Source of the DNA: Mycobacterium sherrisii
Lineage (GTDB): Bacteria > Actinomycetota > Actinomycetes > Mycobacteriales > Mycobacteriaceae
Assembly: GCF_002102355.1 (NCBI RefSeq)
Contig: NZ_LQPT01000045.1
Coordinates: 1-54,633 of the forward strand
Length of the DNA stretch: 54,633 nucleotides
Direction of reading: 5' to 3'
A program made the position numbers and the translations under genes. Below are positions 13,011-54,633 of this stretch, piece after piece (position 1 is the first letter of the stretch; each line of letters starts with the position of its first letter). The notes below the pieces were generated by a model. It was given only the letters and a program-made list of their open reading frames with translations. It was not told where the DNA came from and did no database searches.

Positions 13011-13675
13011 ATGCACCTGCCTCTTCACCAGAACTTGCTGCGCGGCCGGTTGCGGCCATTTTCGGTGGCTCCGACGGGGCCGCACCCGGAGGTTGCGGGC
13101 TGGCCCCTTCGGTCTTGTCGATAGGCTGTATCCCAGGCGGAAAAATGATCCGATATGGGAATCGTCCGTGCGGCGCTGAACGGTGGCGTGTACCCGGTCT
13201 CGACAAGTCGTAAAACGATATGACAAAAACCGCCTGACATGCCAACTTCTGCAAGTGTAGCCCGGCAGGTAGCGGCGACGTAAATTCGCTGCGGCCCGCC
13301 CGCGATGACCCGCGCAAATGGGCTTGCGCGGCTCATCAACCCACCCACGACAGCGCACACGGGCGCAACCCGGCCGCCCCGCGGGCCGCCTCATCGGGTT
13401 TGCTGTGACGCGCGTCGTATCCGGGGACCGCCGATGGCCACGATCACAGGCCGGCAGCATCGCGCACTGCGGGACAGGGATACAGCGCGGGGCCAACGTG
13501 TGCGGGTCACCGGTGACCGGCGCGGCGGGACAAGCCCGGCCCGGCGCCGGCTCGGGGTCCGGGCCTGCGGAGTTTGCGCGATACTGAGATGACGCGTGCG
13601 AAGATGCCGGTCGCGTATCACCCCTGCTGTTCGGCCGCGACACGCGACGATCCATCGCCCGGCACCGAGGAGCCC
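13011..13675. other. Intergenic region between gltB and the EspI-like gene
   Basis: About 665 bp separate these divergent genes. No convincing gene is seen. A relatively AT-rich part around 13130-13260 is where the gltB promoter could lie. GGTCACCGGTGACC at 13505-13518 is a perfect 14-bp palindrome and might be an operator. The GAGGAG ribosome-binding site of the downstream gene precedes 13676. Confidence 0.5.
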
Positions 13676-15016: not shown

Positions 15017-15025
15017 TGCCGTTCC

Positions 15026-15904: not shown

Positions 15905-15924
15905 GAAACATCGACGATCTGGTG

Positions 15925-15962
15925 CCGGGAAAAGTTACGCGCTTTGACTGTAACTTTCCCGG
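15925..15962. promoter_or_regulatory. Large inverted repeat between the sigma gene and the nitroreductase gene
   Basis: CCGGGAAAAGTTAC (15925-15938) and GTAACTTTCCCGG (15950-15962) are complementary except for one extra A, separated by 11 bases. The repeat lies in the divergent promoter region of the sigma factor and the deazaflavin-dependent nitroreductase, 20 bp from the sigma ATG. It could be an operator or two back-to-back copies of one promoter element; the binding protein is unknown. Confidence 0.6.
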
Positions 15963-16024
15963 CCGCGCGCCCGTCGTAGCCGCAGATCTTCGTCGATCGC
16001 CGGGTTTGGCAGATAGGAGTCAAG

Positions 16025-16465
16025 ATGTCCGAACCGCAGCCGCCGCGCTACCTCAAGCCGATGAACAAACTGATGATGGCGGTCCAGCGACTCGGTATAC
16101 CGACCGGACCCGCAATGGTGCTCACGGTGCCGGGTCGCAAGTCGGGTCAACCGCGGAGCACCCCGATGACACCGTTCGAATATCAGGACGGCCTTTACGT
16201 GGTGGCCGGCTACCCCGGGGCCGACTGGGCGGCCAATGCCCGCGCCGCGGGGACCGGCACGCTCAGCCGGGGCCGCCGGTCACGCCGGGTCCGGATCGTC
16301 GAACTCACCGCTGCGCAGGCGCGGCCGGTACTGCGGGTGTTTGCCGTGAAGGTGCCCGTCGGTGTGGCATTCGCGAAACGCGCGGGAATGGTGCGTGATG
16401 GAACGGCTGACGAATTCGAAGCACTGGCGGGCCGGGTCGCGGTCTTCCGGTTCGAACCGGCATGA
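16025..16465 (+). CDS. Deazaflavin-dependent nitroreductase (Ddn/DUF385 family)
   Basis: A clear AGGAG lies six bases before the ATG. The 146-residue protein has the family core MVLTVPGRKSGQPRSTPMTPF near residues 37-57, then the strand GLYVVAGYPGADWAANARAAG near residues 61-81, both typical of F420-binding split-barrel nitroreductases such as Ddn (Rv3547). The family reduces quinones and nitro compounds with F420H2 at the membrane; the substrate here is unknown. A later helix has VKVPVGVAFAKRAGMV. The gene is divergent from the ECF sigma factor with a shared palindromic control region, so it may be part of that regulon. Confidence 0.85.
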   Translation: MSEPQPPRYLKPMNKLMMAVQRLGIPTGPAMVLTVPGRKSGQPRSTPMTPFEYQDGLYVVAGYPGADWAANARAAGTGTLSRGRRSRRVRIVELTAAQARPVLRVFAVKVPVGVAFAKRAGMVRDGTADEFEALAGRVAVFRFEPA

Positions 16466-16557
16466 CGGTCGACGGCCTTGCGCGTGCCGCAGCGGGGGGT
16501 CGTGCACCGCGTCCGGTTGCCGCCGGTCGCTGCCTCAGATTCGCCGGTCATGGGGGA

Positions 16558-16839
16558 TCAGGCCGACTTCATGTGCTGACGCACGGGGTATCCGTTGCGC
16601 TCGGCCAGCGACCGCAATTGGTTGAGCGCGAAGGCCCGCGGCCGACCCGATTGGGGAATCACGACGCCGGCCCACAGTCCTTCGGCACCGGGAATCTCGA
16701 CGGCGTCGCGGGCGCAGCGCCACCGCCGCGGGCACGCACGGCACAGCGCTTTGGCCTCGGCATCCGGCTCCGTCGTCCAGCGATCGGGGTCGTTGGTACA
16801 GGCGCCCAACGGGATGTTGTACACAGCGGTCGCGGTCAT
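16558..16839 (-). CDS. whiB6: Iron-sulfur transcription factor WhiB6
   Basis: The 93-residue protein carries four cysteines at C14, C33, C36 and C42 (CxxC in LCRACPRRWRC), which would bind a 4Fe-4S cluster, followed by the WhiB turn EGLWAGVVIP and a basic C-terminus. The sequence PLGACTNDPDRWTT and AERNGYPVR is close to M. tuberculosis WhiB6 (Rv3862c), which has about 20 further N-terminal residues in its annotation. WhiB6 regulates ESX-1 genes in M. tuberculosis and M. marinum; with ESX-1 absent here its targets must differ or be elsewhere. A perfect 14-bp inverted repeat lies about 65 bp upstream. Confidence 0.92.
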   Translation of the reverse strand: MTATAVYNIPLGACTNDPDRWTTEPDAEAKALCRACPRRWRCARDAVEIPGAEGLWAGVVIPQSGRPRAFALNQLRSLAERNGYPVRQHMKSA

Positions 16840-16903
16840 CCCTACGTTCCTCCAGTCGGTCTTCAGTAAGCGCTGCGGTTCTGCGGGCTATGTTCGTCAG
16901 CGT

Positions 16904-16940
16904 ATCCACATAACCGTCGCAATGCAACGGTTATGTGGAT
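16904..16940. promoter_or_regulatory. Perfect 14-bp inverted repeat upstream of whiB6
   Basis: ATCCACATAACCGT at 16904-16917 and ACGGTTATGTGGAT at 16927-16940 are exactly complementary around a nine-base spacer. The repeat is 64 bp upstream of the whiB6 ATG and on the opposite side faces the Rv3863-like gene. Its outer ends (TATCCACA and TGTGGAT) resemble DnaA boxes, but the length of the symmetry suggests a dimeric regulator or a cruciform. The binding protein is unknown. Confidence 0.65.
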
Positions 16941-17120
16941 GGCTTCGGAGATAGGCGGTGCGTAGGGCTTCCCCGGCAGGCGTGAATGACGAGGTCATGC
17001 CGGGTTGATGCGCGCCCCAGGTTGCTCGACGCAAACTGCAGCGTGTGTACGCTGTTGTCGGCGTGGACCTCGTTCCAAAGTCGCCCGGCCGGGCAAGAAC
17101 TGCGCGCTGCAACCATAGCG

Positions 17121-17978
17121 ATGCGATATGATCGCCGGGTGCAACGGTTCGACCAGGTAAGCCGGGAACGGGCGGAAGTCGTGCCGCTCGGCGTCGTGCG
17201 GTCGCACCAGGCGGTGCAGCATGGCGCCGGCCACCTGGAAGGTGGCGACAGCACGGCACTCGATCCGGGCGTGGTTCGTGCCGGTGCCGCGGCCGCGGCC
17301 CGCCGCCGCGAGCTCGACATCAGTCAACGCAGCCTTGCCGCCGACGGCATCATCAACGCCGGCGCACTGATCGCGTTCGAAAAGGGACGCAGCTGGCCGC
17401 GAAAGCGGACGCGCACCAAGCTCGAGGAGGTACTGCGGTGGCCCGCGGGAACCATCGAGCGGATCCGCCGCGGCGAACCGGTCGCCACCGAGCCTGACGC
17501 CGTCGCCCCACCCGACGATGGCGCCGGCGACGGCACCGACACCGGCGGCGCGGCGTCCCTGGTCGCTCAGGCCGTCGTGGCCGCCGTGGACGGTTGCAGC
17601 CTGGCGATCGCCGCCCTGCCGCCGGCCGATGACGCCGGATTTGTCGAACGCGCCGCGCCCATCCTCGCCGATTTGCGCCAACTCGAAGCGGTCGCGGTCC
17701 GGGCAACCCGGATCAGCCGGATCACCCCCGAATTGATCAAGGCGCTCAGCGCCGTTCGCCGGCATCGTGATGAGTTGATGATGCTCGGAGCGACCGCCCC
17801 GGGCGCACCGTTGGGCCAGCGGCTGTATGCCGCCCGGCGCCGGGCCAACCTGACCCCCGAAGAGACGGCCGTGGCCGCCGGGGTGGCCGAGGGCATGATC
17901 GCGCGTGCCGAGGCCGACGAACCGGTCCCCGCCCATGTCGCGGAGGCCATCGAAACGCTGATCGACCAGATCGGATGA
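17121..17978 (+). CDS. Rv3863-like protein with two XRE-type helix-turn-helix segments
   Basis: From ATG 17121 the protein is 285 residues; GTG 17139 is an alternative. A stretch around residues 55-105 (AAAARRRELDISQRSLAADG, IINAGALIAFEKGRSWPRKR) resembles an XRE helix-turn-helix and is nearly identical to M. tuberculosis Rv3863 as remembered. A similar fold recurs near the C-terminus (LGQRLYAARRRANLTPEET, AVAAGVAEGMIARAE). Between them is an alanine-rich helical region. Rv3863 is about 390 residues, so the N-terminal 100 or so residues are missing or replaced here. It follows whiB6 divergently and converges with eccA2 24 bp away. Function is unknown; DNA binding is inferred. Confidence 0.75.
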   Translation: MRYDRRVQRFDQVSRERAEVVPLGVVRSHQAVQHGAGHLEGGDSTALDPGVVRAGAAAAARRRELDISQRSLAADGIINAGALIAFEKGRSWPRKRTRTKLEEVLRWPAGTIERIRRGEPVATEPDAVAPPDDGAGDGTDTGGAASLVAQAVVAAVDGCSLAIAALPPADDAGFVERAAPILADLRQLEAVAVRATRISRITPELIKALSAVRRHRDELMMLGATAPGAPLGQRLYAARRRANLTPEETAVAAGVAEGMIARAEADEPVPAHVAEAIETLIDQIG

Positions 17979-18002: not shown

Positions 18003-19841
18003 TCAAAGCACTATCGGCACATGCTTTTCCGTGCACGCGTCCTTGACCGCCGCCACGATGTCCTGGGTGCGTAGCGTCTGCAGGTCCGCCACGGTCACCG
18101 AACCCTTGTCCATGCGATGCTGCGCGGCGACCCGCGAGTCGCGCAGCCGTTCCGCGCGTTCAACGACGTTGCGGGCGAAGCGACCGTTGTGCATGACGTC
18201 GATGCCGTGTTCCCCGTTGGGGGCGCGGTAGTCGCGCAAGGTGGCACACGCCGCGCGCAGCGCGTCGGCCGTGGCGGGATCAAGAAGGGTCGCGCGTGGT
18301 TTGCCGTATCGGACGGCGATTTCCACCAGCTCGTCGGGCGTGTAGGACTCAAACCGCAACTTGCGGTTGAACCGGCCCGCCAGACCCGGGTTGACGGTGA
18401 GGAACTCGTCAACTTCCTTCTCGTATCCGGCGCCGATGAAGCAGAAGTCGAAACGGTGCACCTCCAGCGCCACCAAGAGCTGGTTGACGGCCTCCATCCC
18501 GATCATGTCCGGCCGGCCGTCCTGATGCCGCTCCACCAACGAGTAGAACTCGTCCATGAACAGGATGCGGCCCAGCGACCGATTGATCAGCTCGTTGGTC
18601 TTCGGCCCGGAGGCCCCGATGTGTTCAGCGCAGAAGTCGGCGCGCTTCACTTCGATGATCTCCGGGTGGCGCACGATGCCCAGCCCCGCGTAGATCTTCC
18701 CCAACGCCTCGGCGGTGGTGGTCTTACCGGTACCGGGCGGCCCGACAAGCAGCATGTGGTTGGTCTGATTGGCCACCGGCAGGCCCGCGGCCAACCGCAG
18801 GGCGCGCACCTCGATCTGGTCCTCTAGTTCCGCGACCGCCCGCTTGACGTCGGCCAGTCCGACCTGGTTGTCGAGCAGCGCCCGGCCCTCTTGCAGCAGT
18901 TCGCTGCGCCGCTCTTGATGCTCTTCTTCCTCGCGCTGCTGCGCCGACCGCTCGGTGGTCACATCCCATTTGTTGGTGCGCGAACGTATGGACTGCTCGT
19001 CGGTAACCACCAGCTGCAGGGCGGGGTCCGCCAGCGCTTGCTTGGCCGGCTCGAGCAGAGCCCCGTTGATCGTGGCCTTGGACAACCAGATCTGCGCCTT
19101 GGCCTCCTCACCGAGCTGCCGATGCGCCATCCCGCGCACATAGGCAAGGTCGGCCGCGATGAGCGGGAAGTCGTTGGGATCTATTGCGGTGACGGCTGTT
19201 TCGAGCTGCTGGCGCCGCGCCTCGGTCCCGCCGTAGCCGGTGCGCAGCTCGACCCGGTCGGTCCACTCCAGCGCCACCCGTGCCTGTCCAAGATGGGCCG
19301 CGCCGTGCGCCGCCAGCGTGCAGATGGCCGCGGTGACCGCCGACATGATGATCGCCTGCGGCGGCAAGATGGCCGCTGCCACCGAGACGACATCGGGCCA
19401 CCGTTGCGTCGCGAACATCAAGTAGGCCTCGATGTACTGCTTCCACTGATGGTTCTCCCAGGTGTCCAGCAGCGTCGAATCCGCAAGCAACGCTTCGGCT
19501 TTCTCGTACTGGCCAGCGTCGATCAAGGCGCTGGCCAGCGCCAGGCCGGCATGCGAGGCCTCGGTAACCGAAATCGACAGATAGGGGCCGGCCTTGATCG
19601 GTGCCGAGAGGCGTGCGCCGATCCGGTTGGTCTCGCGATGCAGGCGGCTTCCGCAGTTGTACAGCTGCTCGATGGTCGACAACGCCTCGTCTCCCGCGGC
19701 GATCCGGCCCAGCCAGGCGTCGGCCATCGAGGGGTCGACCTCGGTCGCTTCGCGAAATCGCGCCGCGGCGCCGGCAACATCGGTGTCGAGCAACGCCATC
19801 GCCTGGTCGAAGTGCTTGCGTGCGGCGACCGGACTGGTCAT
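18003..19841 (-). CDS. eccA2: ESX-2 AAA+ ATPase EccA2
   Basis: The 612-residue protein has a helical TPR-like N-terminal half (SMADAWLGRIAAGDEALSTI, TQRWPDVVSVAAAILPPQAI) and a CbxX/CfqX-type AAA+ domain with Walker A GPPGTGKTTTAEALGK, Walker B RILFMDEFYS and the sensor/arginine region NPGLAGRFNRKLRFESYTPDE. EccA proteins are cytosolic and act on secreted Esx, Esp and PE/PPE substrates. Closest resemblance is EccA2 (Rv3884c, 619 aa). Its start overlaps the eccE2 stop by four bases, and it is the last gene of the minus-strand ESX-2 operon. Confidence 0.93.
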   Translation of the reverse strand: MTSPVAARKHFDQAMALLDTDVAGAAARFREATEVDPSMADAWLGRIAAGDEALSTIEQLYNCGSRLHRETNRIGARLSAPIKAGPYLSISVTEASHAGLALASALIDAGQYEKAEALLADSTLLDTWENHQWKQYIEAYLMFATQRWPDVVSVAAAILPPQAIIMSAVTAAICTLAAHGAAHLGQARVALEWTDRVELRTGYGGTEARRQQLETAVTAIDPNDFPLIAADLAYVRGMAHRQLGEEAKAQIWLSKATINGALLEPAKQALADPALQLVVTDEQSIRSRTNKWDVTTERSAQQREEEEHQERRSELLQEGRALLDNQVGLADVKRAVAELEDQIEVRALRLAAGLPVANQTNHMLLVGPPGTGKTTTAEALGKIYAGLGIVRHPEIIEVKRADFCAEHIGASGPKTNELINRSLGRILFMDEFYSLVERHQDGRPDMIGMEAVNQLLVALEVHRFDFCFIGAGYEKEVDEFLTVNPGLAGRFNRKLRFESYTPDELVEIAVRYGKPRATLLDPATADALRAACATLRDYRAPNGEHGIDVMHNGRFARNVVERAERLRDSRVAAQHRMDKGSVTVADLQTLRTQDIVAAVKDACTEKHVPIVL

Positions 19842-21388
19842 GGGGTGTCCATCGCTTCGAGCTCAGGAGTTCGCAAGGCCATCGGCTCCGACGATACGTA
19901 CCGATTCTCGGCGCGGAACAGCTCCACCTCCACCGAATGCACATGGTCGGCGGCGGTCACGTCCACTGTGGCCGGTCCCGTCTGGGTGATCAGCACGTTC
20001 GCGGTTCCCCGATAGGGTTCGCCTGGCGTCCCGACGGAGATCAATGTGTTCGGACGCGGCGCCGGCGACATGCTGCCGTCCACCACGCTCACCGTCGTGC
20101 CGGACGCCGGCTTGGGCTGATCGGTTACGGCGATGTCGGGCATGCGAACACTGGCCCAGCGCTGCAGGTTTCGGGTGTGGACGGTGATCCGTTCGCCGGC
20201 ACCGGCGAGCCGGATGACGAACCGCTTGGCCAGCGCGTCCTCCGCGGCGATGTGTACGCGGCTGAATTCGCCGGCGTCGTCGAACGGCAGCAACATCCGG
20301 TTCCCGCCGGCGACCTTGCCGAGCAGCACACCCGACGACCCGATCGGGATGACGAGCGGACCCCGCAGCGGGCCGCGGCGGATGCCGCGCAACGCCGGCA
20401 ACGGGCCGCACAGGTTGGCGGCCACCGCCTGCGCCTGTTCACCGCGCAGAGTGCGCAGCCGCATGCTCAGCGACGCCGTGGGGGGCTGGGCGGTACGCAC
20501 CGTCACGGTGGCGGTGGCGCTGACGGGCCCCGCTTTGGAGCCGAAAAGCGTGATGTTCTGCGCGATCCCGTCGACACGCGCCGACCAGGCCTGTGCCAAC
20601 GTCTCGGTGCTGAGGTCACCGGGCCGGTACCAATAGGTCGTCAGCCACCCGCCGTCACTGCGCACCGACCGCCAGCGCCGGTTCGAAACGTCCAGCGCGG
20701 AGCGCCCCAGCCGACGCTCCATCTCCACGATGTCGGTGGCCGTGGCCACCTTCGCGCGGATCCCGCGCTGGCGCATGGCCGCGCTGATTCGCTGCGCCGC
20801 CGCCAGGGTCGCGGTACCGACGGAGGTTCGGCCACGCAACGCCTCCACGTTGTCCAGCGCCGAAATCCTTACTATCAGCCAGGTTTCGCGCTGTCCCGCA
20901 TACGGCGGCGTGCCGATCAAAGTGTCGTACACCCGCGGGTAATCACCGGTACTGCGTCGGCGGGCGCCCGCGGTGACGATGCTGAGTGAACCCACGGTGA
21001 GGCCCAGGCTTTGGTGCAACAGCGGCACCAGCTCGGCGATATCGAACGCGTTGTCGGTGAACGTCGCGGTCGACCCGGTGAACAATGTCGGCGCGTGCGC
21101 CTTTCCCAGCAGTTGAACCGCGGCCGCGGCGACGCCGTCCTGGTAGCGGATCCCCCCGCCGGCGCGGTCGTTGGCGACCGTGAGGGGCTCGGTCCACCAG
21201 ATCGGGGAACGCCGCCGGCGCCACAGGATCAGCCAGGACCACAACTGCTGGCCCCGCCACCGGATGACACCGACGGCGATCCCGATCACCAAACCCGCTG
21301 CCGCGCCGGGATATCCGCCGATGGCCCACCCGGCCAGAACGGAGATGAAGATCGCGACAATGATCGCCAGCTTGGTTCCGGCTCTCAT
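19838..21388 (-). CDS. eccE2: ESX-2 membrane component EccE2
   Basis: The 516-residue protein starts with two closely spaced membrane helices (LAIIVAIFISVLAGWAIGGY and AAAGLVIGIAVGVIRW) and continues as a large soluble domain with WWTEPLTVANDRAGGGIRYQ, the EccE domain opening. Length is close to EccE2 (Rv3885c, 537 aa). EccE sits at the periphery of the EccBCDE membrane complex and contacts MycP. Start and stop overlap the mycP2 stop and the eccA2 start by four bases each, which indicates a tightly coupled operon. No broken motif is seen, so the gene appears intact although eccB2 and eccC2 are absent. Confidence 0.9.
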   Translation of the reverse strand: MRAGTKLAIIVAIFISVLAGWAIGGYPGAAAGLVIGIAVGVIRWRGQQLWSWLILWRRRRSPIWWTEPLTVANDRAGGGIRYQDGVAAAAVQLLGKAHAPTLFTGSTATFTDNAFDIAELVPLLHQSLGLTVGSLSIVTAGARRRSTGDYPRVYDTLIGTPPYAGQRETWLIVRISALDNVEALRGRTSVGTATLAAAQRISAAMRQRGIRAKVATATDIVEMERRLGRSALDVSNRRWRSVRSDGGWLTTYWYRPGDLSTETLAQAWSARVDGIAQNITLFGSKAGPVSATATVTVRTAQPPTASLSMRLRTLRGEQAQAVAANLCGPLPALRGIRRGPLRGPLVIPIGSSGVLLGKVAGGNRMLLPFDDAGEFSRVHIAAEDALAKRFVIRLAGAGERITVHTRNLQRWASVRMPDIAVTDQPKPASGTTVSVVDGSMSPAPRPNTLISVGTPGEPYRGTANVLITQTGPATVDVTAADHVHSVEVELFRAENRYVSSEPMALRTPELEAMDTP

Positions 21389-23049
21389 CGTTCGCGCCGC
21401 GCTCGGACGATCAGCGACACCACCGCGATCGCGGCTACCACGACCCCGGCGAACACCAGTGCCACGTTGCGGGCGCGGTGATCCGGCGGCGGTGGCGGCG
21501 GCAGCGGGTGCACTACCCGGGTGGCGGCTCCCGGCGGAAGACGCTCGCCCGCAGGCACATCGAACGTCAGCGCCGCCACCGGGTCGACCACGCCGTAACC
21601 GACCTGGTTGTCGACCCCGCGCGGAGGATTGTGCGCCGTCTGCAGAATCCGGTTGATGATCTGGTGAGCGGACAACGCCGGATACTTGGCCCGCACCAAC
21701 GCGGCCACACCGCTGACATACGCGGCGGAAAAGCTGGTGCCCCAGAACGGCATGTTCTTCTCACCCGGACGAATCGGCGGGTAGGCATTGGCCGGTCCCC
21801 CGGTCTCCGGTGACAGCCCCATGATCCCGACGCCCGGTGCCGCCGCCGCCACCCACGGCCCGGCCAGGCTTTTGTTGATCGGCGCGCCGGTGTTGTCGAC
21901 CGCGCCAACCGAGAGGACGTAGTCGGAAAACCACGACGGCGACGACACCGTCTTGACCTGGTGCCAGTCGCGCGGATCGGCGGCGTTGAGCGGGTCGAAG
22001 GTCGGGTTCTGCGCGCACCCGTCCTCGCTGTCGTTACCGGCTGCGGCGACGACGACGGCGTCCTTGACGGTGGCGGCATACCAAACCGCCGCCCCGATCG
22101 CGCCTTGGTCCAGCGGGTCGGCGGCCGAAACGCAGGCCGTCACACTGATATTGATCACTTTGGCGCCCATGTTCGCGGCGTGCACGATGGCGCTCGCCAG
22201 GGTGGCGATAGTGCCGGCCTTTTTACGGCCTTCCGAGTCGCCGGGGCCCGGGTTGACCGGTTCGAAGGCGCGCGATGACTGCCGGATGGAAATGATGGTC
22301 GCGTGCGGCGCGACGCCCGCCACACCGTCGGGCGCACCCGGCGGCGGTGGAGGTACCTCGGGATCGTCGGGCTGGCCCGGCGCCGGGTCGCCAGGTCCGT
22401 TCGACGGCGCGTCGGGCGGCGGCGGTGGCGGCGGCGGTGCGGCCGGGACCGTCTGCGTGATCGTCACCGGTGACGGCGGCGGTGGTGGTGCGGGTGGCGG
22501 CGGGGGCCCCCCGGGCGGCGGAGCGCCGGCGTCGGTCGGCGGCGGACCGGCCGGTGGCGGGAACGCCGGCGCACTTGGCATCGGTGGCGGCATCGGAGTG
22601 CCTTGGGGCGCGGCACCGATTACCGACGCCACGATGGTGCCGTGCGCGTCGCAATCGCTGAGGCCGTCGCCGCCCATGATGTAGTCGCCACCGGCGACCA
22701 CTGGTAACCGCCGGCTGGGGTTGACACCGGTGTCGATGACCGCCACCGCGACGCCATTGCCGGTCGAGTACTGCCATGCCTTGCTGACGTTGAGCATGGT
22801 GAAACCGGGTGCGGGCAACGCCACGTTGGGGTCGGCGACGGTGATCGTCCGCGCGCAGGCGAAACTCTGCCGCATCGGCTGTTCGGCGGCCGGTTTGCCG
22901 TCGGGCGGAACCCGGCCCGGGTCCACCACCGGTGGCGGAATAGCCTGCGCCACCGGAAGACCGGCGATCAACGTCACGAGCACGGTCGTTAGTGCCGCGG
23001 CGCCGACCCGCTGGGCCAATGCGGCAACAGTGAGCGCCCGCCGAGTCAT
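21385..23049 (-). CDS. mycP2: ESX-2 mycosin protease MycP2
   Basis: The start is ATG 23049, which overlaps the eccD2 stop by four bases and gives 554 residues. A signal peptide (about residues 12-36) precedes a subtilisin domain with the triad in AVAVIDTGVN (D106), SDCDAHGTIVAS (H136) and FWGTSFSAAYVSG (about S439). The loop after the histidine, roughly residues 150-250, is a very long proline-rich insertion. A C-terminal membrane helix (NVALVFAGVVVAAIAVVSLIV) ends in basic residues. Mycosins are anchored outside the membrane and are needed for ESX complex stability. All catalytic residues are retained. Confidence 0.92.
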   Translation of the reverse strand: MTRRALTVAALAQRVGAAALTTVLVTLIAGLPVAQAIPPPVVDPGRVPPDGKPAAEQPMRQSFACARTITVADPNVALPAPGFTMLNVSKAWQYSTGNGVAVAVIDTGVNPSRRLPVVAGGDYIMGGDGLSDCDAHGTIVASVIGAAPQGTPMPPPMPSAPAFPPPAGPPPTDAGAPPPGGPPPPPAPPPPPSPVTITQTVPAAPPPPPPPPDAPSNGPGDPAPGQPDDPEVPPPPPGAPDGVAGVAPHATIISIRQSSRAFEPVNPGPGDSEGRKKAGTIATLASAIVHAANMGAKVINISVTACVSAADPLDQGAIGAAVWYAATVKDAVVVAAAGNDSEDGCAQNPTFDPLNAADPRDWHQVKTVSSPSWFSDYVLSVGAVDNTGAPINKSLAGPWVAAAAPGVGIMGLSPETGGPANAYPPIRPGEKNMPFWGTSFSAAYVSGVAALVRAKYPALSAHQIINRILQTAHNPPRGVDNQVGYGVVDPVAALTFDVPAGERLPPGAATRVVHPLPPPPPPDHRARNVALVFAGVVVAAIAVVSLIVRARRER

Positions 23050-24539
23050 CGCATGCGCACCCAGGTGAACAACCCGCCGATCCACGCGGCCAGCGGCAGC
23101 GCCGCGATGATCGCGACGATTTCCACCCACTCAGCGGTCATTCGCACCAGCGGAGTAAACCTCGTGATCGGCACCAGCAACGCGGCCAGCAGGCCCGCAC
23201 CGCCGAAGGCGGCCAGCGCCAGCGCACCCCACAGCAGCGTGGAGCCCGACGAAGCAGGCTCGTGCACAACGTATTTGATCACCGCCACGCACACGGCCGC
23301 CGCCGCTCCGCATACCAGCGCGACGGCCTGACGTTTGTCGGCGAAGGCCCGGCCGCGGCTGATGAAGATCACCACAAACAGTCCGGCCAGCACCGCCGCG
23401 GGCGTGCTGCGGTCATGTCCCGGCATCAGCGTCACCCACACCGCGACCGGCAGTGCCAGTCCGGCTGCGGCGCAGATTCCGGTCAAAACGTTGTTGGCCC
23501 GGACGGCCGCCGCCGCAATCTGGGCGCCGCGGGGCGTGGTGTCGGAGTTTGCTTCCTCGTCGCTGCCTTCGTCGACGGGTGCGACCGCGTCGGCGGGCAG
23601 ACCGGCGCTGCGCCGGAACAGGTCCCGGCCGGTGATCGACCCGAAGTACGGCGGCCGGATCCGGGCGACCCACAACGCGATCGTCGGCGCCATCGTCAAC
23701 AGCAGCAGCAAGGCAACCAGCGTGCACATCCCCAGCCACTGCGCCGGAACCGGCCACCACATCCGCGCCGCGGCAACTAGCCCGGCGAGCCCGAGCACGG
23801 TCACCACGGTGGCCGCCACATTGGCGTGTCGCCTTGTCGCAGCGGCGATCCCGCATGTCAACACCGCACCGGCCAGCGCAGCAATGAACGCGTGCGCGGC
23901 GCCGAGGCGCCCAGGGGCACCGGAGGCGAAGCCTGCGGTGAGCAAGGGCACCGCGATCCAGCCCAGACCGTCGATCATGTCGAGGCGCCCCGGCCACCAC
24001 CGCCACACCGTGGCCGCACCGCCGGCGATCAACAGGCCGACGGCAGCGGTCACGATCGTGGGCAGCAACGCATCGGTGGAAAGCCGTTGCCGCACGGCCA
24101 ATCCCAACACGGTCACGGCGGTCATCGCGACGATGACGAGGGCGGTGCGCGCCGCGGTTTGCAGGGTGACCGGTTCGAACAGGGCCTTGCCGACCCGGGC
24201 TAGACCCGTGGACAGCGACTCGTATTGCGGCTCGAACGACTCTCCGGCTACCGCGGGAACCAGAGTGAGCGTGGCCCCATCCTCGACGCCGAGTTCGTCG
24301 AGGGTCTTGGTTACGTCGAGCCGGACCCCGTTGGCCTTGTGCAGTTCATACCCGACACCGGGCTCGAGTCCGGTGAACCCCCGGCGCTTCAGTTCCTCGT
24401 TGAGCAGCTCGACCACGTTGTCGAGGAAGGCCTCGATCGGCACCGAGGCGGGGTAGACCTGCGAAACCAGATGTTCGCCACATACGACCGCGACCGCGCA
24501 GCGGGCTGGAAAAGAAACCTTACCCACAAACGCGGACAC
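23046..24539 (-). CDS. eccD2: ESX-2 channel component EccD2
   Basis: The 497-residue protein has an N-terminal ubiquitin-like domain of about 95 residues (CAVAVVCGEHLVSQVYPAS, VRLDVTKTLDELGVEDGAT) followed by about 11 hydrophobic segments, the EccD topology. Examples are TALVIVAMTAVTVLGLAV and WIGGLFTWVRMR at the end. EccD dimers form the bulk of the membrane scaffold in the ESX complex. Length is near that of EccD2 (Rv3887c, 509 aa). The start codon shares a base with the stop of the upstream Rv3888c-type gene and the end overlaps mycP2, so the genes are translated together. Confidence 0.92.
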   Translation of the reverse strand: MSAFVGKVSFPARCAVAVVCGEHLVSQVYPASVPIEAFLDNVVELLNEELKRRGFTGLEPGVGYELHKANGVRLDVTKTLDELGVEDGATLTLVPAVAGESFEPQYESLSTGLARVGKALFEPVTLQTAARTALVIVAMTAVTVLGLAVRQRLSTDALLPTIVTAAVGLLIAGGAATVWRWWPGRLDMIDGLGWIAVPLLTAGFASGAPGRLGAAHAFIAALAGAVLTCGIAAATRRHANVAATVVTVLGLAGLVAAARMWWPVPAQWLGMCTLVALLLLLTMAPTIALWVARIRPPYFGSITGRDLFRRSAGLPADAVAPVDEGSDEEANSDTTPRGAQIAAAAVRANNVLTGICAAAGLALPVAVWVTLMPGHDRSTPAAVLAGLFVVIFISRGRAFADKRQAVALVCGAAAAVCVAVIKYVVHEPASSGSTLLWGALALAAFGGAGLLAALLVPITRFTPLVRMTAEWVEIVAIIAALPLAAWIGGLFTWVRMR

Positions 24540-25567
24540 TAGCGCGGCCTGTCGGCATCTGGAATGTATTTGTCAGCCAATGCCGCAGTGATTTCGAATA
24601 GGCGCAGCCGAGTCTTCTTCTTCAACTCGTGCCGCGTATCGATGATCCCGCCTTTGGCAAGGAATGGGTCATGCGGCATGAACTCGACCGTCGCGCCGGA
24701 TTGTGCGAATCGCTCGGTGAGATAAGTACGCGCCTCGGCATCGTATTTGTCGCGACTGTCGTTCAGGATGACCATGCTGCGCGACACGAGTTCGTGATAT
24801 CCCATCGAGCGCAGCAAGTCGATCGCCCGGGTCACCGGTAACGAGGTGTCGGCGGTCAGACCGGAAACGAAGACCAGGGTGTCGCACGCGTCGAGCACCG
24901 CCTTCATCACCGGGTGCTCGAGGTCGTCCGAGGTATCCACCACGATGACGGTGTGGGTGCGACGCAGCCGCGACAGCACCCCGGAGAACATCGAGGCCAC
25001 CAGCGGCCGCGGTTGGTCCGACGCCCGGTTCCCGGCCAGTACGTCAAGACCAAGGCTATTCTGCCCCAAGTGTTCCCGGATGTCGGCGTAGCCCTGGACA
25101 TCGGTGTCGTTGAGGACCGCGGCGTAGTCACCCGGCGGCGACTCGTCGATCCGCCCGGCCAGCGTGCCGAAGCCGGGCGCGGCGTCAATCGCGACAACGT
25201 TCTCGGGGCGACACTCCCGGAAGACCGCGCCGATGCACGCCGTCATCGTGGTCTTGCCGACACCGCCCTTACCCGAAACCACCCCGATCACGTACTGCTT
25301 GCGAATGTGGCGTCGGATTCGCTCTTGCAATTCCCGATAATGTCTTTCGGCGGGTGACTCACCGAAGTTGACGGTATGAAACGTTGCTTGATAAACAAAT
25401 TTTCGCCAGCCGCTACCCGGCGGGATTTTGCGCGGCGCGACCATGTCGGAAATGCGTAATGTTCCGGATACCGAGTCCTGATTCTGGTAACGCGCGGCGG
25501 GGACGTCTCGCCGAGTCGGTCCGCTTTGTTCAGGAGAATTGGATGAGCCCGTCCACGGATTCGTCAC
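24539..25567 (-). CDS. ESX-2-associated MinD/ParA-like ATPase (Rv3888c type)
   Basis: The 342-residue protein has a hydrophilic N-terminus of about 45 residues and then a P-loop ATPase domain with the deviant Walker [35 protein letters not shown] and the switch region VIVVDTSDDLEHPVMKAV. Length and sequence match Rv3888c (341 aa). It belongs to the EspI-like group associated with ESX loci, but it lacks the long proline-rich N-terminus of the other copy at 13676-15016. Its function in secretion is unknown. It is one base from eccD2 and 35 bp after espG2. Confidence 0.9.
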   Translation of the reverse strand: MTNPWTGSSNSPEQSGPTRRDVPAARYQNQDSVSGTLRISDMVAPRKIPPGSGWRKFVYQATFHTVNFGESPAERHYRELQERIRRHIRKQYVIGVVSGKGGVGKTTMTACIGAVFRECRPENVVAIDAAPGFGTLAGRIDESPPGDYAAVLNDTDVQGYADIREHLGQNSLGLDVLAGNRASDQPRPLVASMFSGVLSRLRRTHTVIVVDTSDDLEHPVMKAVLDACDTLVFVSGLTADTSLPVTRAIDLLRSMGYHELVSRSMVILNDSRDKYDAEARTYLTERFAQSGATVEFMPHDPFLAKGGIIDTRHELKKKTRLRLFEITAALADKYIPDADRPR

Positions 25568-25602
25568 GATGCCGATGCTATCATTTTCGCGTTACCTTTC
25601 GA

Positions 25603-26436
25603 CTACACGACTTTTCGGTACGAATACCATTCTTGGTGGGCGGGCAGCCGCCGCATCATGTGGCTGATCGCAGATCCGATGTTGTTCTTTGTGCCCGGGG
25701 CGATGATCATCCACTGCTTACCCGCGGACGGAACATGTTCGGCGACGAGCCGGCCTTCCGGTGTATCGATGATCGTCACCGCGCCCTGATCGATGTGGGT
25801 GCGGGTCGGTCGGCCGTTATCCACCCCCGACTGAATGGCCACAATGGACGCCTGGGCCGACTGGTCGGTGTCGGTGGCCAGTCTCAGCAGGTGCAGCTGG
25901 TCGGGCTCGAGGCCCTGGCCAGCCAGGAATTCCTGCAGACGGTTCTGGTCGGTGGCCGCGACGCGCAGCGCGTCCACGTCCAGCGTCACGGGTCGCAGCG
26001 GCGCGGGATCGCTTGCGCCGCAGAGGCGTTCGATCTGTGCGCTGAGCGCAGCGCCGGCGGCGCTCTCGTTGCTCGCGATGCCCGCCCCGCTGATGCGAAC
26101 CAGGTCTCCCGAGCGCTCGATGGAGACCCACCAATGCGCGAACCGGGCCAGCAGTGCGCGGGTGGGCTCACCGTCGCCGGGCAGTCGGAAGTGGATCATC
26201 AGCCCGATGTCGCGGCGGGACAACACCGTCAGCCATTCGACGATGGTTCCGTCGACGGAGTCTGTCTCGTCGACGACCCCGGCGGCCCGCAGCTCGGGCG
26301 TCACCGGATGTTGCAGCGCCTTGTGCTTCGGCTCGACGCTGGGCAGGTGGGGCCGCAGCCCCATTTCGGGAGCGAGGACCTCGATGCCGGTGAGTACCTG
26401 CAGAACCCACAGGCCGTCCAGGGAGGTGGTTAGCAC
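25603..26436 (-). CDS. espG2: ESX-2 PE/PPE-type chaperone EspG2
   Basis: The 277-residue protein starts at GTG 26436 behind AAGGGAAG. It has the EspG opening LDGLWVLQVLTGIEVLAPEMG and the ending MMRRLPAHQEWYSYRKVV, as in Rv3889c (276 aa). EspG proteins bind the tip of PPE partners in PE-PPE pairs and deliver them to the cognate ESX system. No PE or PPE gene is present in this cluster, so any client would have to be encoded elsewhere. A strong hairpin lies between esxC and this gene and may lower its expression relative to the esx genes. Confidence 0.9.
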   Translation of the reverse strand: MLTTSLDGLWVLQVLTGIEVLAPEMGLRPHLPSVEPKHKALQHPVTPELRAAGVVDETDSVDGTIVEWLTVLSRRDIGLMIHFRLPGDGEPTRALLARFAHWWVSIERSGDLVRISGAGIASNESAAGAALSAQIERLCGASDPAPLRPVTLDVDALRVAATDQNRLQEFLAGQGLEPDQLHLLRLATDTDQSAQASIVAIQSGVDNGRPTRTHIDQGAVTIIDTPEGRLVAEHVPSAGKQWMIIAPGTKNNIGSAISHMMRRLPAHQEWYSYRKVV

Positions 26437-26457
26437 GGTCTTCCCTTAAAGCCAGGC

Positions 26458-26485
26458 GCGGGGCGCACGCTCGCGTGCGCCCCGC
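26458..26485 (-). terminator. Perfect 12-bp hairpin between esxC and espG2
   Basis: GCGGGGCGCACG (26458-26469) and CGTGCGCCCCGC (26474-26485) pair exactly around the loop CTCG. The hairpin begins ten bases after the esxC stop on the minus strand and has no T-tract behind it. Mycobacterial terminators often lack one, so it may end most transcripts after esxDC, attenuate the downstream operon or protect the esx mRNA 3' end. Confidence 0.7.
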
Positions 26486-26495
26486 AAAGCCGGGA

Positions 26496-26786
26496 CTATG
26501 CGAAGAACAGGCTCGTGTTGTGATCGGTGGTTATCGCGTTCTCGTGCACCGTGTTTACGGTGTGCCCGTGCAGGCTGACGGTTTGGATCATGTCCTGCAA
26601 CCCACGCAACATCTGTTGTTGCGCATCGAAGAACGTCGTCGCACCGTGGCCCTGGAAGAACTCGGCCAGCTGTTGGGTGATGTGCAGGACGTCGTCGTGG
26701 ATTTCCATCAACTGTGACGCCTGCGCCGCAATATCGCCCGACAACCCACTGACGGCGGCGTGGTTGTAAACAATTTGATCTGCCAT
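26496..26786 (-). CDS. esxC: ESX-2 secreted WXG100-family protein EsxC
   Basis: The 96-residue helical-hairpin protein starts at ATG behind AAGGA. It retains MADQIVYNHAAVSGL, EFFQGHGATTFFDAQQQML and LQDMIQTVSLHGHTVN, corresponding to EsxC (Rv3890c, 95 aa). The turn has FQGHGA in place of the usual WxG, as the M. tuberculosis protein does. EsxC should pair with EsxD and be exported. The C-terminus reads ITTDHNTSLFFA; a YxxxD-type export signal is not obvious. It lies 66 bp after esxD in the same direction. Confidence 0.9.
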   Translation of the reverse strand: MADQIVYNHAAVSGLSGDIAAQASQLMEIHDDVLHITQQLAEFFQGHGATTFFDAQQQMLRGLQDMIQTVSLHGHTVNTVHENAITTDHNTSLFFA

Positions 26787-26852
26787 GTTCGTTGGTCCTT
26801 AACTAAATAGGTCTGTAAATGTCTCGGGTGACACGTCGAACGACAGGTCAAA

Positions 26853-27179
26853 CTAGGTCGACTGCACACCGCCGCCGAACACGCCATTGAGGCTGTGGGC
26901 GGAATCCGCTTCGTGATGTTCCATCAGCGTTGCCGTCTGGCCAAGGCCATGTGCCAGACGGTTGCCGCCTGTCATGACCTGATGCAGGTCATTGGCGATT
27001 TGGCCGGCCGTGTTCAGCGAGGTCGAGCCGGCTTGGCCGGCCCACCCGGTGGCACTGACAATGTTTTCATGGCCACTCAAATACTGATTGGCAATCGCGG
27101 CTGCCTCTTCCAGTCGCGCTTCGATGCGCTGTTTTGCACTGCGTAATAGTTCCGGAGTGACAACTGTCGTCCCCGCCAT
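26853..27179 (-). CDS. esxD: ESX-2 secreted WXG100-family protein EsxD
   Basis: ATG 27179 sits behind GAGGGAG and gives 108 residues (EsxD, Rv3891c, is 107). The protein is two helices around the WxG-type turn SATGWAGQAGST and begins MAGTTVVTPELLRSAKQRIE, typical of EsxD. It would form a heterodimer with EsxC. The gene is first in the remaining ESX-2 cluster; in M. tuberculosis PPE69, PE36, eccC2 and eccB2 come before it, but here only 158 bp separate it from an Rv3906c-like gene, so its promoter must lie in that gap or beyond. Confidence 0.9.
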   Translation of the reverse strand: MAGTTVVTPELLRSAKQRIEARLEEAAAIANQYLSGHENIVSATGWAGQAGSTSLNTAGQIANDLHQVMTGGNRLAHGLGQTATLMEHHEADSAHSLNGVFGGGVQST

Positions 27180-27337
27180 GTTTCTCCCTCGATTCCTTAA
27201 GCTCCCCGACCTGGGATATGGATAGCAGTCTAGACAGGTATTGCACGTTGTCACTTCAGTTCTCGGCTGCTATACAGGCGTCGAATTACCCCGGGGCGGC
27301 GACCGCAAAACGCCTTGTCAGGCCTTTTCAGGCTTTC
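27180..27337. other. Putative deletion junction and esxD promoter region
   Basis: This 158-bp gap joins esxD to the Rv3906c-like gene on the same strand. In M. tuberculosis the space holds PPE69, PE36, eccC2, eccB2 and Rv3896c to Rv3905c. No inverted repeat, transposase fragment or integrase remnant is visible. The esxD ribosome-binding site is at the left end. Confidence 0.6.
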
Positions 27338-27847
27338 TCAAAGCGTGCCGGCGCCGTCGGCCGCACCGTCGCCGTCGGTATCGGTCAACCGGACGTCCCA
27401 CCGCCCATCGCCGTCGGTGTCCACATAACCGGTCACACCCGTCTCATCTGTACACAGCACCCGGTCGGCCAGGCCGTCGCCGTCGCTGTCCACCAGCCGG
27501 TCGTCGGGGTGGCCCCGTCCGTCGAAGTCGACTAGCGGACCGCCGGTGTGCTCGCTGCCGTCGAGCCCATACCATCGCAGGCCCCCGCCCCGATCCGCGG
27601 CAACGGCCCAGGTCCCCGTACCGTCGTCGGTGAAGTACGCCTCGGGGGTGCCGTCGTTGTCGAGGTCGAGCACGGCGTGGTCGACGACACCGTCGCCGTC
27701 GAAATCGCCCAGGGCGTCGTCGCGCAGCCCGTCATGGTCGAAATCCAGACCGATTGATTCCAGTCGACCGTCGTGGTCGAGGTCGAGGTCGGGTTGTCCG
27801 TGCCAGAATGCCGCGGAGCCGTCGTCCGCTGCCAAGCAGTAATCCAC
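27338..27847 (-). CDS. Aspartate-rich DxDxDG repeat protein (Rv3906c type)
   Basis: The 169-residue protein starts at GTG 27847 (MDYCLAADDGSAAFWHGQPD). At least nine aspartate-rich loops follow, such as DLDHDGRLESIGLDFDHDG, DFDGDGVVDHAVLDLDNDG and DTDGDGRWDVRLTDTDGDG. These look like EF-hand or thrombospondin-type-3 calcium-binding loops. No signal peptide or membrane helix is present. Rv3906c has the same length and place just before pcnA. Calcium binding is inferred; function is unknown. The gene is on the esxD side of a kinase fragment. Confidence 0.8.
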   Translation of the reverse strand: MDYCLAADDGSAAFWHGQPDLDLDHDGRLESIGLDFDHDGLRDDALGDFDGDGVVDHAVLDLDNDGTPEAYFTDDGTGTWAVAADRGGGLRWYGLDGSEHTGGPLVDFDGRGHPDDRLVDSDGDGLADRVLCTDETGVTGYVDTDGDGRWDVRLTDTDGDGAADGAGTL

Positions 27848-28391: not shown

Positions 28392-29846
28392 TCAGGCGTT
28401 GCCGCGGGCCTGCCACCAGGCCAGCAGCTGCGCGGTCGCCTCTTCTTCGGCAAGCGGCCCGCGGTCCAATCGCAGCTCCTTCAGAAAGCGCCACGCCTCC
28501 CCGACCTGTGGTCCCGCCGGGATGCCGAGCAGCTCCATGATCCGGTTGCCGTCCAGGTCCGGGCGTACCCGGGCCAGGTCCTCCTGCGCGGCCAACTCGG
28601 CGATGCGCGCCTCGAGGCGGTCGTAGTTTGCCTGCAGCCGGGCGGCCCGGCGCTTGTTGCGGGTGGTGCAGTCGGCACGCACCAACTTGTGCAAGCGGGG
28701 CAGCAGCGGCCCGGCGTCGGTGACATAGCGGCGCACCGCCGAGTCGGTCCACTTTCCGTCGCCGTAGCCATGGAACCGCAGGTGCAGATAGACCAGCTGG
28801 GAGACGTCGTCAACCATCTGCTTGGAGTACTTAAGTGCCCGCAGCCGTTTGCGGACCATTTTCGCGCCGACGACCTCGTGGTGGTGGAAGCTGACACCAC
28901 CATCCGGCTCGTGGCGTCGGGTCGCCGGCTTGCCGATGTCATGCAGCAGCGCGGCCCAGCGCAGCACCAGATCTGGGCCCCCTTCTGGGGGTGGGTCTTC
29001 CAGGGCGATGGCCTGACGCAGCACGGTCAGCGAATGTTGGTAGACGTCCTTGTGCTGGTGGTGTTCGTCGATGGCCATCTGCATGCCCCCGACCTCGGGC
29101 AGGACGACGTCACCCATTCCGGTCTGCACGATCAGGTCGATCCCGGCCACCGGGTCGGTTCCCAATAGCAGCTTGTCCAGTTCGACGGCCACCCGTTCGG
29201 CGCTGATCCGGGCCAGCTGCGGCGCCATCTGTTCGATCGCCATCCGTACCCGGGGGGCGATGGTGAATCCGAGTTGCGCGACAAACCGCGCCGCGCGCAG
29301 CATCCGCAACGGGTCGTCGCCGAAGGACACCTCGGGCGCGGCCGGGGTGTCGAGCACCCGGGCGCGCAGCGCGGCCAGACCGCCGAGCGGATCCACGAAG
29401 TCACCCGGGCCGGCTGCCGTGATGCGCACCGCCATCGCGTTGGCCGTGAAATCTCGGCGCACCAAGTCGTCCTCGAGGCGATCACCGAATTGCACCTCAG
29501 GATTCCGCGACACCTGGTCGTAGCTGTCCGCGCGGAAGGTGGTGATCTCCAGCCGGAGCTCGCCCTTGCCGACACCCACGGTGCCGAATGCGATGCCGGT
29601 GTCCCACACCGCATCGGACCACCCGCGAACGATCTGCTGGATCTGCTCCGGTCGGGCGCTGGTGGTGAAATCCAGATCCGGACTCAGCCTGCGTAACAAA
29701 GCATCTCGTACCGATCCGCCGACCAGATACAACTGGTGCCCCGCGGCCTCGAACAACGTGCCCAGCTCGCGCAGCACCTCGGCATGCCGGTTCAGGGTGA
29801 CGGCAGCTGAAGCCAGCAGCTCCACATCTTGGGCGGCGTCGGACAC
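28392..29846 (-). CDS. pcnA: CCA-adding tRNA nucleotidyltransferase / poly(A) polymerase-like PcnA
   Basis: The 484-residue protein begins with the nucleotidyltransferase domain: GGSVRDALLRRLSPDLDFTT with the DxD metal ligands, then RRDFTANAM and DPLGGLAALR. A C-terminal HD domain follows (WAALLHDIGKPATRR, FHHHEVVGAKM). Mycobacterial PcnA (Rv3907c, 480 aa) is regarded as the CCA-adding enzyme that completes tRNA 3' ends. It is divergent from mutT4 across a 192-bp gap with a 33-bp direct repeat. No motif is missing. Confidence 0.93.
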   Translation of the reverse strand: MSDAAQDVELLASAAVTLNRHAEVLRELGTLFEAAGHQLYLVGGSVRDALLRRLSPDLDFTTSARPEQIQQIVRGWSDAVWDTGIAFGTVGVGKGELRLEITTFRADSYDQVSRNPEVQFGDRLEDDLVRRDFTANAMAVRITAAGPGDFVDPLGGLAALRARVLDTPAAPEVSFGDDPLRMLRAARFVAQLGFTIAPRVRMAIEQMAPQLARISAERVAVELDKLLLGTDPVAGIDLIVQTGMGDVVLPEVGGMQMAIDEHHQHKDVYQHSLTVLRQAIALEDPPPEGGPDLVLRWAALLHDIGKPATRRHEPDGGVSFHHHEVVGAKMVRKRLRALKYSKQMVDDVSQLVYLHLRFHGYGDGKWTDSAVRRYVTDAGPLLPRLHKLVRADCTTRNKRRAARLQANYDRLEARIAELAAQEDLARVRPDLDGNRIMELLGIPAGPQVGEAWRFLKELRLDRGPLAEEEATAQLLAWWQARGNA

Positions 29847-43105: not shown

Positions 43106-44835
<1,730 letters not shown>

Positions 44836-44874
44836 CTACAGTGCGGCGAACTACACCGCTGTAATCCCGGGTGG

Positions 44875-45447: not shown

Positions 45448-45524
45448 CTTCTCTCCCTCATCCATGGGTCCGTCCCTGTCTCTTTCGAGTCACTCTTCGG
45501 CGACGGCCCGGTAAAGCTGTGGCG

Positions 45525-47327: not shown

Positions 47328-47350
47328 CGCCAACAAGCCCGTCGGTCAGA

Positions 47351-49600: not shown

Positions 49601-49602
49601 AC

Positions 49603-51303: not shown

Positions 51304-51313
51304 GACCGAATAG

Positions 51314-53278: not shown

Positions 53279-54633
<1,355 letters not shown>

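What the first reader, a model, noticed from the sequence alone, without database searches (positions are those of the whole stretch)
18003..27179. ESX-2 cluster kept intact but without its motor ATPase, EccB2 and PE/PPE genes
eccA2, eccE2, mycP2, eccD2, the Rv3888c-type ATPase, espG2, esxC and esxD are all full length, with catalytic motifs present and four-base overlaps preserved. No gene for EccC2 (FtsK/SpoIIIE-type motor), EccB2, PE36 or PPE69 lies in the window. ESX secretion needs EccC and EccB, so either this system borrows them from another ESX locus, they are encoded elsewhere, or the set has a secretion-independent role. The absence of pseudogenes argues against simple decay, or else the loss is recent.
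Basis: partly seen in the sequence, partly recalled or inferred. Interest (0 to 1): 0.75.

Follow-up and report, generated by a model that had tools for sequence, protein, structure and literature searches.

The report
Secretion operon split across replication origin
The secretion genes that seemed to be missing are not lost: an old flip of the chromosome around its replication origin most likely moved them to the other side of the origin, and both halves are still kept intact.

Summary
The eight ESX-2 genes at 18003-27179 are real and full length, and the window holds no eccB2, eccC2, PE36 or PPE69. The genome does: they form one intact block on contig C104. C45 (the window) ends inside gyrB and C104 begins near the end of the same gene, so the halves flank oriC, their cut ends about 80 kb apart. 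Of 68 genomes I assigned to this ESX-2 type (296 searched), 20 show the same split on one contig and 27 are contiguous. Gene order indicates that one inversion around oriC cut the locus between PPE69 and esxD. Trees of the halves agree (24 of 28 splits) and dN/dS is low in both. A promoter-like element 5' of esxD also occurs in uncut loci. Most likely one machine assembles from two loci (inferred). The split is published for M. paragordonae (2019), a different one for the M. avium complex (2016). Searches showed no account of the inversion or the element; the data contradict the published lateral-transfer explanation.

The parts
18003..19841 (-). eccA2, AAA ATPase, 612 aa
   Evidence: TIGR03922 656 bits, cut-off 467; Walker A at residue 367
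19838..21388 (-). eccE2, 516 aa
   Evidence: TIGR03923 219 bits, cut-off 108
21385..23049 (-). mycP2, mycosin protease, 554 aa from the ATG that overlaps eccD2 by four bases
   Evidence: TIGR03921 359 bits, cut-off 279, on the longer ORF 21385-23130; start and catalytic motifs
23046..24539 (-). eccD2, membrane channel subunit, 497 aa
   Evidence: TIGR03920 321 bits, cut-off 95
24539..25567 (-). Rv3888c-type MinD/ParA-like ATPase, 342 aa
   Evidence: PF01656 32.2 bits, cut-off 25.4; GKGGVGKT at residue 99
25603..26436 (-). espG2, PE/PPE chaperone, 277 aa
   Evidence: PF14011 126 bits, cut-off 27
26496..26786 (-). esxC, WXG100 family, 96 aa
   Evidence: PF06013 35 bits, cut-off 27.3
26853..27179 (-). 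esxD, WXG100 family, 108 aa; first gene of this half
   Evidence: PF06013 30.7 bits on the longer ORF 26853-27254; start
27227..27258 (-). promoter-like element of the esxD unit: TGAAGTGACA (27258-27249) and TAGACT 16 bases on (27232-27227)
   Evidence: exact 10-mer 700-1100 bases before espG2 in 59 of 68 loci, uncut ones included; alignment; position read
27259..27337 (.). inferred inversion junction, between the promoter-like element and the Asp-rich ORF
   Evidence: gene-order comparison with contiguous genomes
27338..27847 (-). Asp-rich 169-aa ORF (flank, not ESX): one end of the inverted segment
   Evidence: next to MDMPI in uncut G301 and G012, next to esxD here
28392..29846 (-). pcnA, flank inside the inverted segment
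   Evidence: PF01743 and PF12627; synteny
53303..54633 (+). gyrB codons 1-443 by alignment, cut by the contig end; codons 656-677 open C104, then gyrA and, at C104 38.6-51.8 kb, the other ESX-2 half

Best explanation
This is one half of a complete ESX-2-type type VII secretion system whose genes lie in two places. An inversion around oriC, in an ancestor of this clade, cut the locus between PPE69 and esxD. It left esxD-esxC-espG2-ATPase-eccD2-mycP2-eccE2-eccA2 on one side and (WhiB)-NlpC-DUF4226-EspC-like-DUF2694-DUF5631-eccB2-eccC2-PE36-PPE69 on the other, with the cut ends now about 80 kb apart. The esxD unit already had its own promoter-like element just 3' of the cut, so the inversion separated two transcription units instead of beheading one operon. 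EccB2 and EccC2 from the far block are inferred to assemble with EccD2, EccE2 and MycP2 from the near block into one working membrane machine. Shown: presence and integrity of both halves, the gene orders, congruent descent, purifying selection, the conserved element. Inferred: the inversion as the event behind the gene orders, promoter activity, assembly in trans, secretion.
For: EccB and EccC on C104: PF05108 496 bits, TIGR03924 724 bits, TIGR03925 585 bits, all above cut-off. A PE-like 101-aa ORF and a PPE (PF00823) follow. C45 ends at gyrB codon 443; C104 starts at codon 656, then gyrA. Both halves lie 61-82 kb apart on opposite strands of one contig in 20 of the 68 genomes assigned to this type, among them the single-contig G031, G006, G045, G147 and G175. 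Uncut order in G301, G213, G100 and G012; in G301 and G012 the flank leuS-AlgH-MDMPI adjoins the Asp-rich ORF and pcnA, so one inversion converts one order into the other. Trees of EccB+EccC and EccD+MycP+EccE+EccA: split genomes monophyletic, support 1.0 in both; 24 of 28 splits shared, against a mean of 4.3 and a maximum of 6 after shuffling labels within this ESX-2 clade. dN/dS 0.04-0.21 for seven of eight genes in four pairs, mycP2 0.06-0.23. Element 5' of esxD in 59 of 68 loci.
Against: Assembly in trans and secretion are not tested. About 0.6 kb of gyrB is missing between C45 and C104, so the join is inferred from the shared gene. In G104 and G297 the 1.8 and 1.6 kb read beyond PPE69 hold no MDMPI match, so that flank is not the same there. 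EsxC lacks the WXG and YxxxD/E motifs. The element has no counterpart 5' of block 2 here, so shared regulation is not shown. Some genomes with this ESX-2 are decaying: eccD2 interrupted in G115 and G145, remnant loci in M. tilburgii and M. leprae, an eccC2/eccA2 deletion scar in G004, so the system is dispensable in places. In M. gordonae-type genomes the near half persists without EccB2/EccC2, so intactness alone does not prove that the halves work together. G203 has the pair 1.6 Mb apart on one strand, which the single inversion does not explain.
Confidence: 0.86

Rival explanations
1. The near half is an orphan that borrows EccB/EccC from ESX-3, -4 or -5, or works without secretion.
For: This is the genomic state of M. 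gordonae-type genomes: G230 and G155 match eccD2 but not eccB2 at E 1e-140. The EccC hits of G230 fit other ESX types by score and length, and a deletion runs from inside its WhiB gene to inside PPE69. Its near half still shows dN/dS 0.03-0.25 against M. paragordonae over five genes, against 0.04-0.21 for the pair M. paragordonae-G006.
Against: In this genome the cognate EccB2 and EccC2 exist, are intact and co-evolve with the near half.
Confidence: 0.05
2. The eccB2/eccC2 block was acquired later by lateral transfer, as proposed for M. paragordonae.
For: PMC6616192 argues this from low similarity and absence in M. gordonae (section 9 read).
Against: Block trees agree across 31 taxa. Uncut genomes carry both parts in one locus at the matching place. 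G230 shows a deletion scar. The best-ranked plasmid EccC is 47.6% identical and all 228 plasmid records with a match lie below 60%. The low similarity can be explained because M. tuberculosis-like genomes carry a different ESX-2 clade.
Confidence: 0.04
3. Assembly artefact: C45 or C104 is misjoined or a contaminant.
For: The genome is a 128-contig draft, and 0.6 kb of gyrB is missing between the two contigs.
Against: The same two junctions occur in the single-contig genomes G006 and G045 and in M. paragordonae; C45 and C104 end in complementary parts of gyrB.
Confidence: 0.02
4. The locus is relict and decaying; both halves merely have not yet been lost.
For: Interrupted or deleted copies in several relatives.
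Against: Low dN/dS in both halves at dS about 0.4-0.9 between species.
Confidence: 0.08

Closest known systems
ESX-2 of Mycobacterium paragordonae, reported as two distant regions (PMC6616192)
   Same: same two blocks, same junctions, same clade
   Different: that paper ascribes the second block to lateral transfer; here an inversion with common descent
M. avium complex ESX-2 with transposed EccB2/EccC2 (PMC4791881, passages)
   Same: ESX-2 core genes in two places; in G046 on either side of oriC
   Different: different breakpoint (eccC2|PE36, not PPE69|esxD), a different ESX-2 clade, and pcnA stays with the eccB2 side; that G046 and G036 belong to the M. avium complex is my inference
ESX-2 of M. 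tuberculosis (Rv3884c-Rv3895c, one region; PMC6616192)
   Same: same components
   Different: one locus; the M. tuberculosis-like genome G143 carries a clade with EccC2 59% and EccD2 52% identical to this one; no named M. tuberculosis sequence was compared
Contiguous ESX-2 of Ca. M. methanotrophicum, M. fragae, M. shimoidei, M. komossense
   Same: same clade and gene content
   Different: uncut
pMpg-2 plasmid ESX-2-like locus
   Same: similar content, also NlpC, EspC-like, DUF4226 and DUF5631 genes
   Different: EccB 55%, EccC 47.6-49% identical; set as outgroup in the trees

Membership tests
Complete mycobacterial ESX (type VII) system | EccB, EccC, EccD, EccE core and mycosin | tested here: met
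   all above NCBIfam cut-offs, on two contigs
Complete mycobacterial ESX (type VII) system | EccA, EspG, PE/PPE and Esx pair | tested here: met
   EccA, EspG and two WXG100, PPE; the PE is by size and place only, no Pfam or NCBIfam hit
Complete mycobacterial ESX (type VII) system | WXG motif in both Esx proteins | tested here: not met
   EsxD has WAG, EsxC has none; both pass the WXG100 profile. I do not treat the motif in both partners as decisive (recalled)
Complete mycobacterial ESX (type VII) system | secretes its Esx and PE/PPE proteins | not testable with these tools
   -
Split ESX-2 as in M. paragordonae | cut between PPE69 and esxD; near half beside pcnA, far half beside MDMPI/AlgH | tested here: met
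ESX-2 clade of M. tuberculosis- and M. avium-like genomes | groups with their EccB2/C2/D2 in trees | tested here: not met
   falls in a sister clade; support of the clade holding this system 0.94 (block 2) and 0.68 (block 1), five representatives of the other clade, pMpg-2 as outgroup
ESX-2AN (M. tusciae) | orthology with the M. tusciae cluster | not tested
   no named M. tusciae sequence was compared; lead from PMC4791881

The most novel reading that the evidence does not exclude
An inversion around oriC in the ancestor of most slow-growing mycobacteria severed the original ESX-2. Three fates followed: kept in two halves (simiae, szulgai, asiaticum and paragordonae relatives); motor half deleted with the other half retained (M. 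gordonae type); or near half replaced at the same site by a different ESX-2 (M. tuberculosis- and M. avium-like genomes), where the WhiB-NlpC-DUF4226-EspC-DUF2694-DUF5631 cluster right of the origin (whiB5-Rv0023-Rv0024 and, by recall, on to Rv0030) is the stranded remnant. M. tuberculosis ESX-2 would then not be the ortholog of this one.
Probability: 0.5. Interest if true: 0.65.

Novelty: new member of a known kind. Interest (0 to 1): 0.45.

Why it matters
It removes an apparent paradox (a secretion system without a motor) and gives a rule for annotators: in these species look across oriC. It offers a test of whether a multi-subunit membrane machine needs its genes together: by my reading they have stayed apart since the clade's ancestor under purifying selection. 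It also suggests that 'ESX-2' covers two clades, so functions found for M. tuberculosis ESX-2 (phagosome permeabilisation, PMC8593097, abstract) should not be carried over unchecked.

Tried and rejected
Orphan/borrowing reading: dropped for this genome once EccB2/EccC2 were found. Plasmid origin of block 2: rejected, best-ranked plasmid EccC 47.6%. A regulon marked by TGAAGTGACA: rejected, only 2 exact sites in the genome, equal to the reversed-pattern control. The element in block 2 or other ESX loci of this genome: none at up to 1 mismatch in L018-L024. In the other ESX-2 clade (G026, G143, G046, G036, G022, L127) there are single-mismatch hits (L175, L062, L063, L127), none at the esxD position by my reading of the coordinates. 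A one-mismatch window scan expects 1.46 chance hits, so the single site in the window is not significant by itself; the weight lies in 59 of 68 loci. One search selected exact matches, so its invariance is by construction. The 68 loci are related and include two identical copies (L072, L073).

Counting choices: the 68 genomes are those of the 296 that I assigned to this ESX-2 type by score and copied by hand; G161 and G203 entered by their EccD2 although their EccB2 scores are in the range of the other clade. Second copies in G269, second pieces of G145 and G115 and the plasmid copy of G253 were left out. Fifteen have the genes on different contigs (this genome included), 2 have eccD2 only, 3 eccB2 only. 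'Split' totals 21 including G203 (1.6 Mb, same strand), so 20 with the typical pattern (G145, with an interrupted eccD2, among them); 'contiguous' totals 27 including M. montefiorense (G275), which is rejoined in another order. From the trees I left out L108, the four other ESX loci of this genome and, for block 1, G151. G031 EccC2 entered by its first ORF only (785 aa), and some MycP2 entries were fragments. dN/dS is pairwise Nei-Gojobori; the mycP2 value 0.233 (this genome against M. triplex) may reflect a fragmentary entry. In G230 pcnA and the Asp-rich ORF are broken, so that assembly may hold sequence errors.

The labels Rv0025-Rv0030 are recalled. The 'no account seen' statement rests on searches in an open-licence library only. 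Papers: passages of PMC4791881, PMC6616192 (plus its section 9), PMC8115904, PMC10619280, PMC7020754 and PMC4894912; abstract and outline of PMC8593097; all others only as search listings.

Full report
WHAT IS THERE. The window is contig C45 of a 5.56-Mb, 128-contig genome. Its closest named relatives by EccD2 are M. triplex and M. genavense (88%), M. ahvazicum and M. montefiorense (87%), i.e. the M. simiae group (group name recalled). The eight genes at 18003-27179 are open and full length. mycP2 most likely starts at 23049, giving a four-base overlap with eccD2; the longer ORF to 23130 is not needed.

THE MISSING HALF. Five EccB genes and five full-length EccC genes were found in the genome, and six EccD-profile matches. 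C104 has EccB and EccC but no EccD; C45 has EccD but neither. On C104 the order is WhiB(-), NlpC/P60, DUF4226, EspC-like, DUF2694, DUF5631, eccB2 (44564-46060), eccC2 (46067-50146), a PE-like ORF, PPE (50636-51844), then MDMPI-domain and AlgH genes. EccB2 and EccC2 pass all curated cut-offs. None of the four missing genes has a tblastn match in the window. C45 ends at gyrB codon 443, C104 begins at codon 656, followed by gyrA; about 0.6 kb is unassembled between them. dnaA lies at 48.0 kb of C45. So the halves flank oriC: 27.5 kb from esxD to the C45 end, 0.6 kb, and 51.8 kb to the end of PPE69, about 80 kb; the nearest edges (esxD and NlpC) are about 67 kb apart.

HOW IT AROSE. In Ca. M. methanotrophicum (G301) the order on one chromosome is leuS-AlgH-MDMPI-|Asp ORF-pcnA...dnaA...WhiB-NlpC-...-eccB2-eccC2-PE-PPE-|esx genes-espG2-...-eccA2. 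Here it is eccA2...esxD-|Asp ORF-pcnA...dnaA...WhiB-...-eccC2-PE-PPE-|MDMPI-AlgH-leuS. Inverting the segment between the bars turns one into the other. G012 shows the G301 order; G213 and G100 are contiguous too, left flank not fetched. The cut order is found in G031, G006 and G045 with both flanks, and in G253 (M. paragordonae) and G175 at both junctions. In G104 and G297 the near junction is the same, but the 1.8 and 1.6 kb read beyond PPE69 hold no MDMPI match. Among 296 genomes, 68 carry this ESX-2 type by my assignment: 20 split 61-82 kb on opposite strands, one split otherwise, 27 contiguous, 15 on different contigs, 2 with eccD2 only, 3 with eccB2 only.

DO THE HALVES BELONG TOGETHER? 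Trees of EccB2+EccC2 (32 taxa) and EccD2+MycP2+EccE2+EccA2 (31 taxa) both make the split genomes monophyletic with support 1.0; 24 of 28 splits are shared, label shuffles within this ESX-2 clade give 4.3 on average and 6 at most, and pairwise distances correlate at 0.97 within it (25 taxa). dN/dS lies at 0.04-0.23 for all eight genes in four species pairs. This contradicts the lateral-transfer account for M. paragordonae (PMC6616192, section 9 read), though not its observation of the split.

WHY THE CUT IS TOLERATED. Upstream of esxD, TGAAGTGACA is followed here after 16 bases by TAGACT. The exact 10-mer occurs in 59 of the 68 loci, in all 59 at 700-1100 bases before espG2, i.e. 5' of esxD; two of these loci hold a second copy elsewhere. 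Of the nine without it, L102, L114, L119 and L120 hold no sequence 5' of esxD, L127 is the other ESX-2 clade, L135 and L137 are degraded loci, and L091 and L099 have a longer interval between PPE69 and esxC. The flanking bases are poorly conserved. Uncut loci carry it too, so it predates the cut. I read it as a promoter with a -35-like GTGACA; that is inference. It is rare (2 exact sites in the genome) and absent from block 2, so co-regulation of the halves is open. A lead: PMC7020754 (passages) says whiB5 lies beside Rv0023-Rv0024 (NlpC/p60) and, apparently of WhiB5, that it regulates esx-2 genes; the WhiB gene beside block 2 is its probable counterpart.

OTHER FATES. In G230 a deletion runs from inside the WhiB gene to inside PPE69, its EccC hits fit other ESX types by score and length, and its near half is open, with dN/dS much like that of its relatives: 0.124, 0.196, 0.069, 0.027 and 0.245 for eccD2, eccE2, eccA2, the ATPase and espG2 against M. 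paragordonae; 0.137, 0.177, 0.073, 0.040 and 0.205 for M. paragordonae against G006 (mycP2 there was not measured). PMC6616192 had noted the missing genes. This is where a motor-less ESX half really exists. M. tuberculosis-like G143 and G026 and M. avium-like G046 have the post-inversion flanks, keep the WhiB-to-DUF5631 cluster right of the origin without eccB2/eccC2, and carry another ESX-2: whole and left of the origin in G143 and G026, itself cut between eccC2 and PE36 in G046. Their dnaA is 88-90% identical to G031's, against 82-85% for G012 and G301, yet their EccC2 is 58-59% identical to this one, against 78-82%. That discordance is the basis of the replacement reading in the section on the most novel reading; that G143, G026 and G046 belong to those groups is inferred from size and layout.

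KNOWN OR NEW. The split itself is in print: M. paragordonae (PMC6616192) and, for a different cut, the M. avium complex ('transposition of EccB2 and EccC2', PMC4791881, passages). I saw no paper giving the oriC inversion, the element or the M. tuberculosis-side remnant (searches; open-licence papers only).

Noticed in passing
G000 genome; window 13574-17978: None of the five EccC genes of this genome is of the split ESX-1 kind, and eccA2 is followed by an HTH gene, a sigma factor and an EspI-like ATPase, whereas M. triplex and M. ahvazicum have mycosin/EccE genes like those of ESX-1 there.
   Followed up: partly
L019 (G000:C122:24200-44199): A second ESX-4-like locus with eccA, eccE, mycP and an EspI-like ATPase besides ESX-4 on C16; it resembles the published description of ESX-4EVOL.
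   Followed up: partly
L050 12058-16133 (G031): eccC2 is read as two ORFs (785 and 573 aa) overlapping by one base; error or real split not resolved.
   Followed up: no
L075 14690-21491 (M. montefiorense): The eccA2 match ends early and eccB2/eccC2 follow on the same strand: the halves are rejoined in a new order, with eccB2 in more than one piece.
   Followed up: no
L060 8001-9593 (G004): Deletion scar joining the start of eccC2 to the end of eccA2; most of ESX-2 is gone.
   Followed up: no
L072, L073 (M. numidiamassiliense): Two copies of the near half on one contig in opposite orientation with the same match coordinates, both eccB2 copies between them; probably an assembly duplication.
   Followed up: no
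L063, L166 (G022): In a Mycolicibacter-like genome the other ESX-2 clade lies in reverse orientation directly after the WhiB-to-DUF5631 cluster, with MDMPI-AlgH-leuS still left of the origin.
   Followed up: no
L203, L213 (G297, G104): Beyond PPE69 there is at least 1.6-1.8 kb without the MDMPI gene seen in relatives.
   Followed up: no
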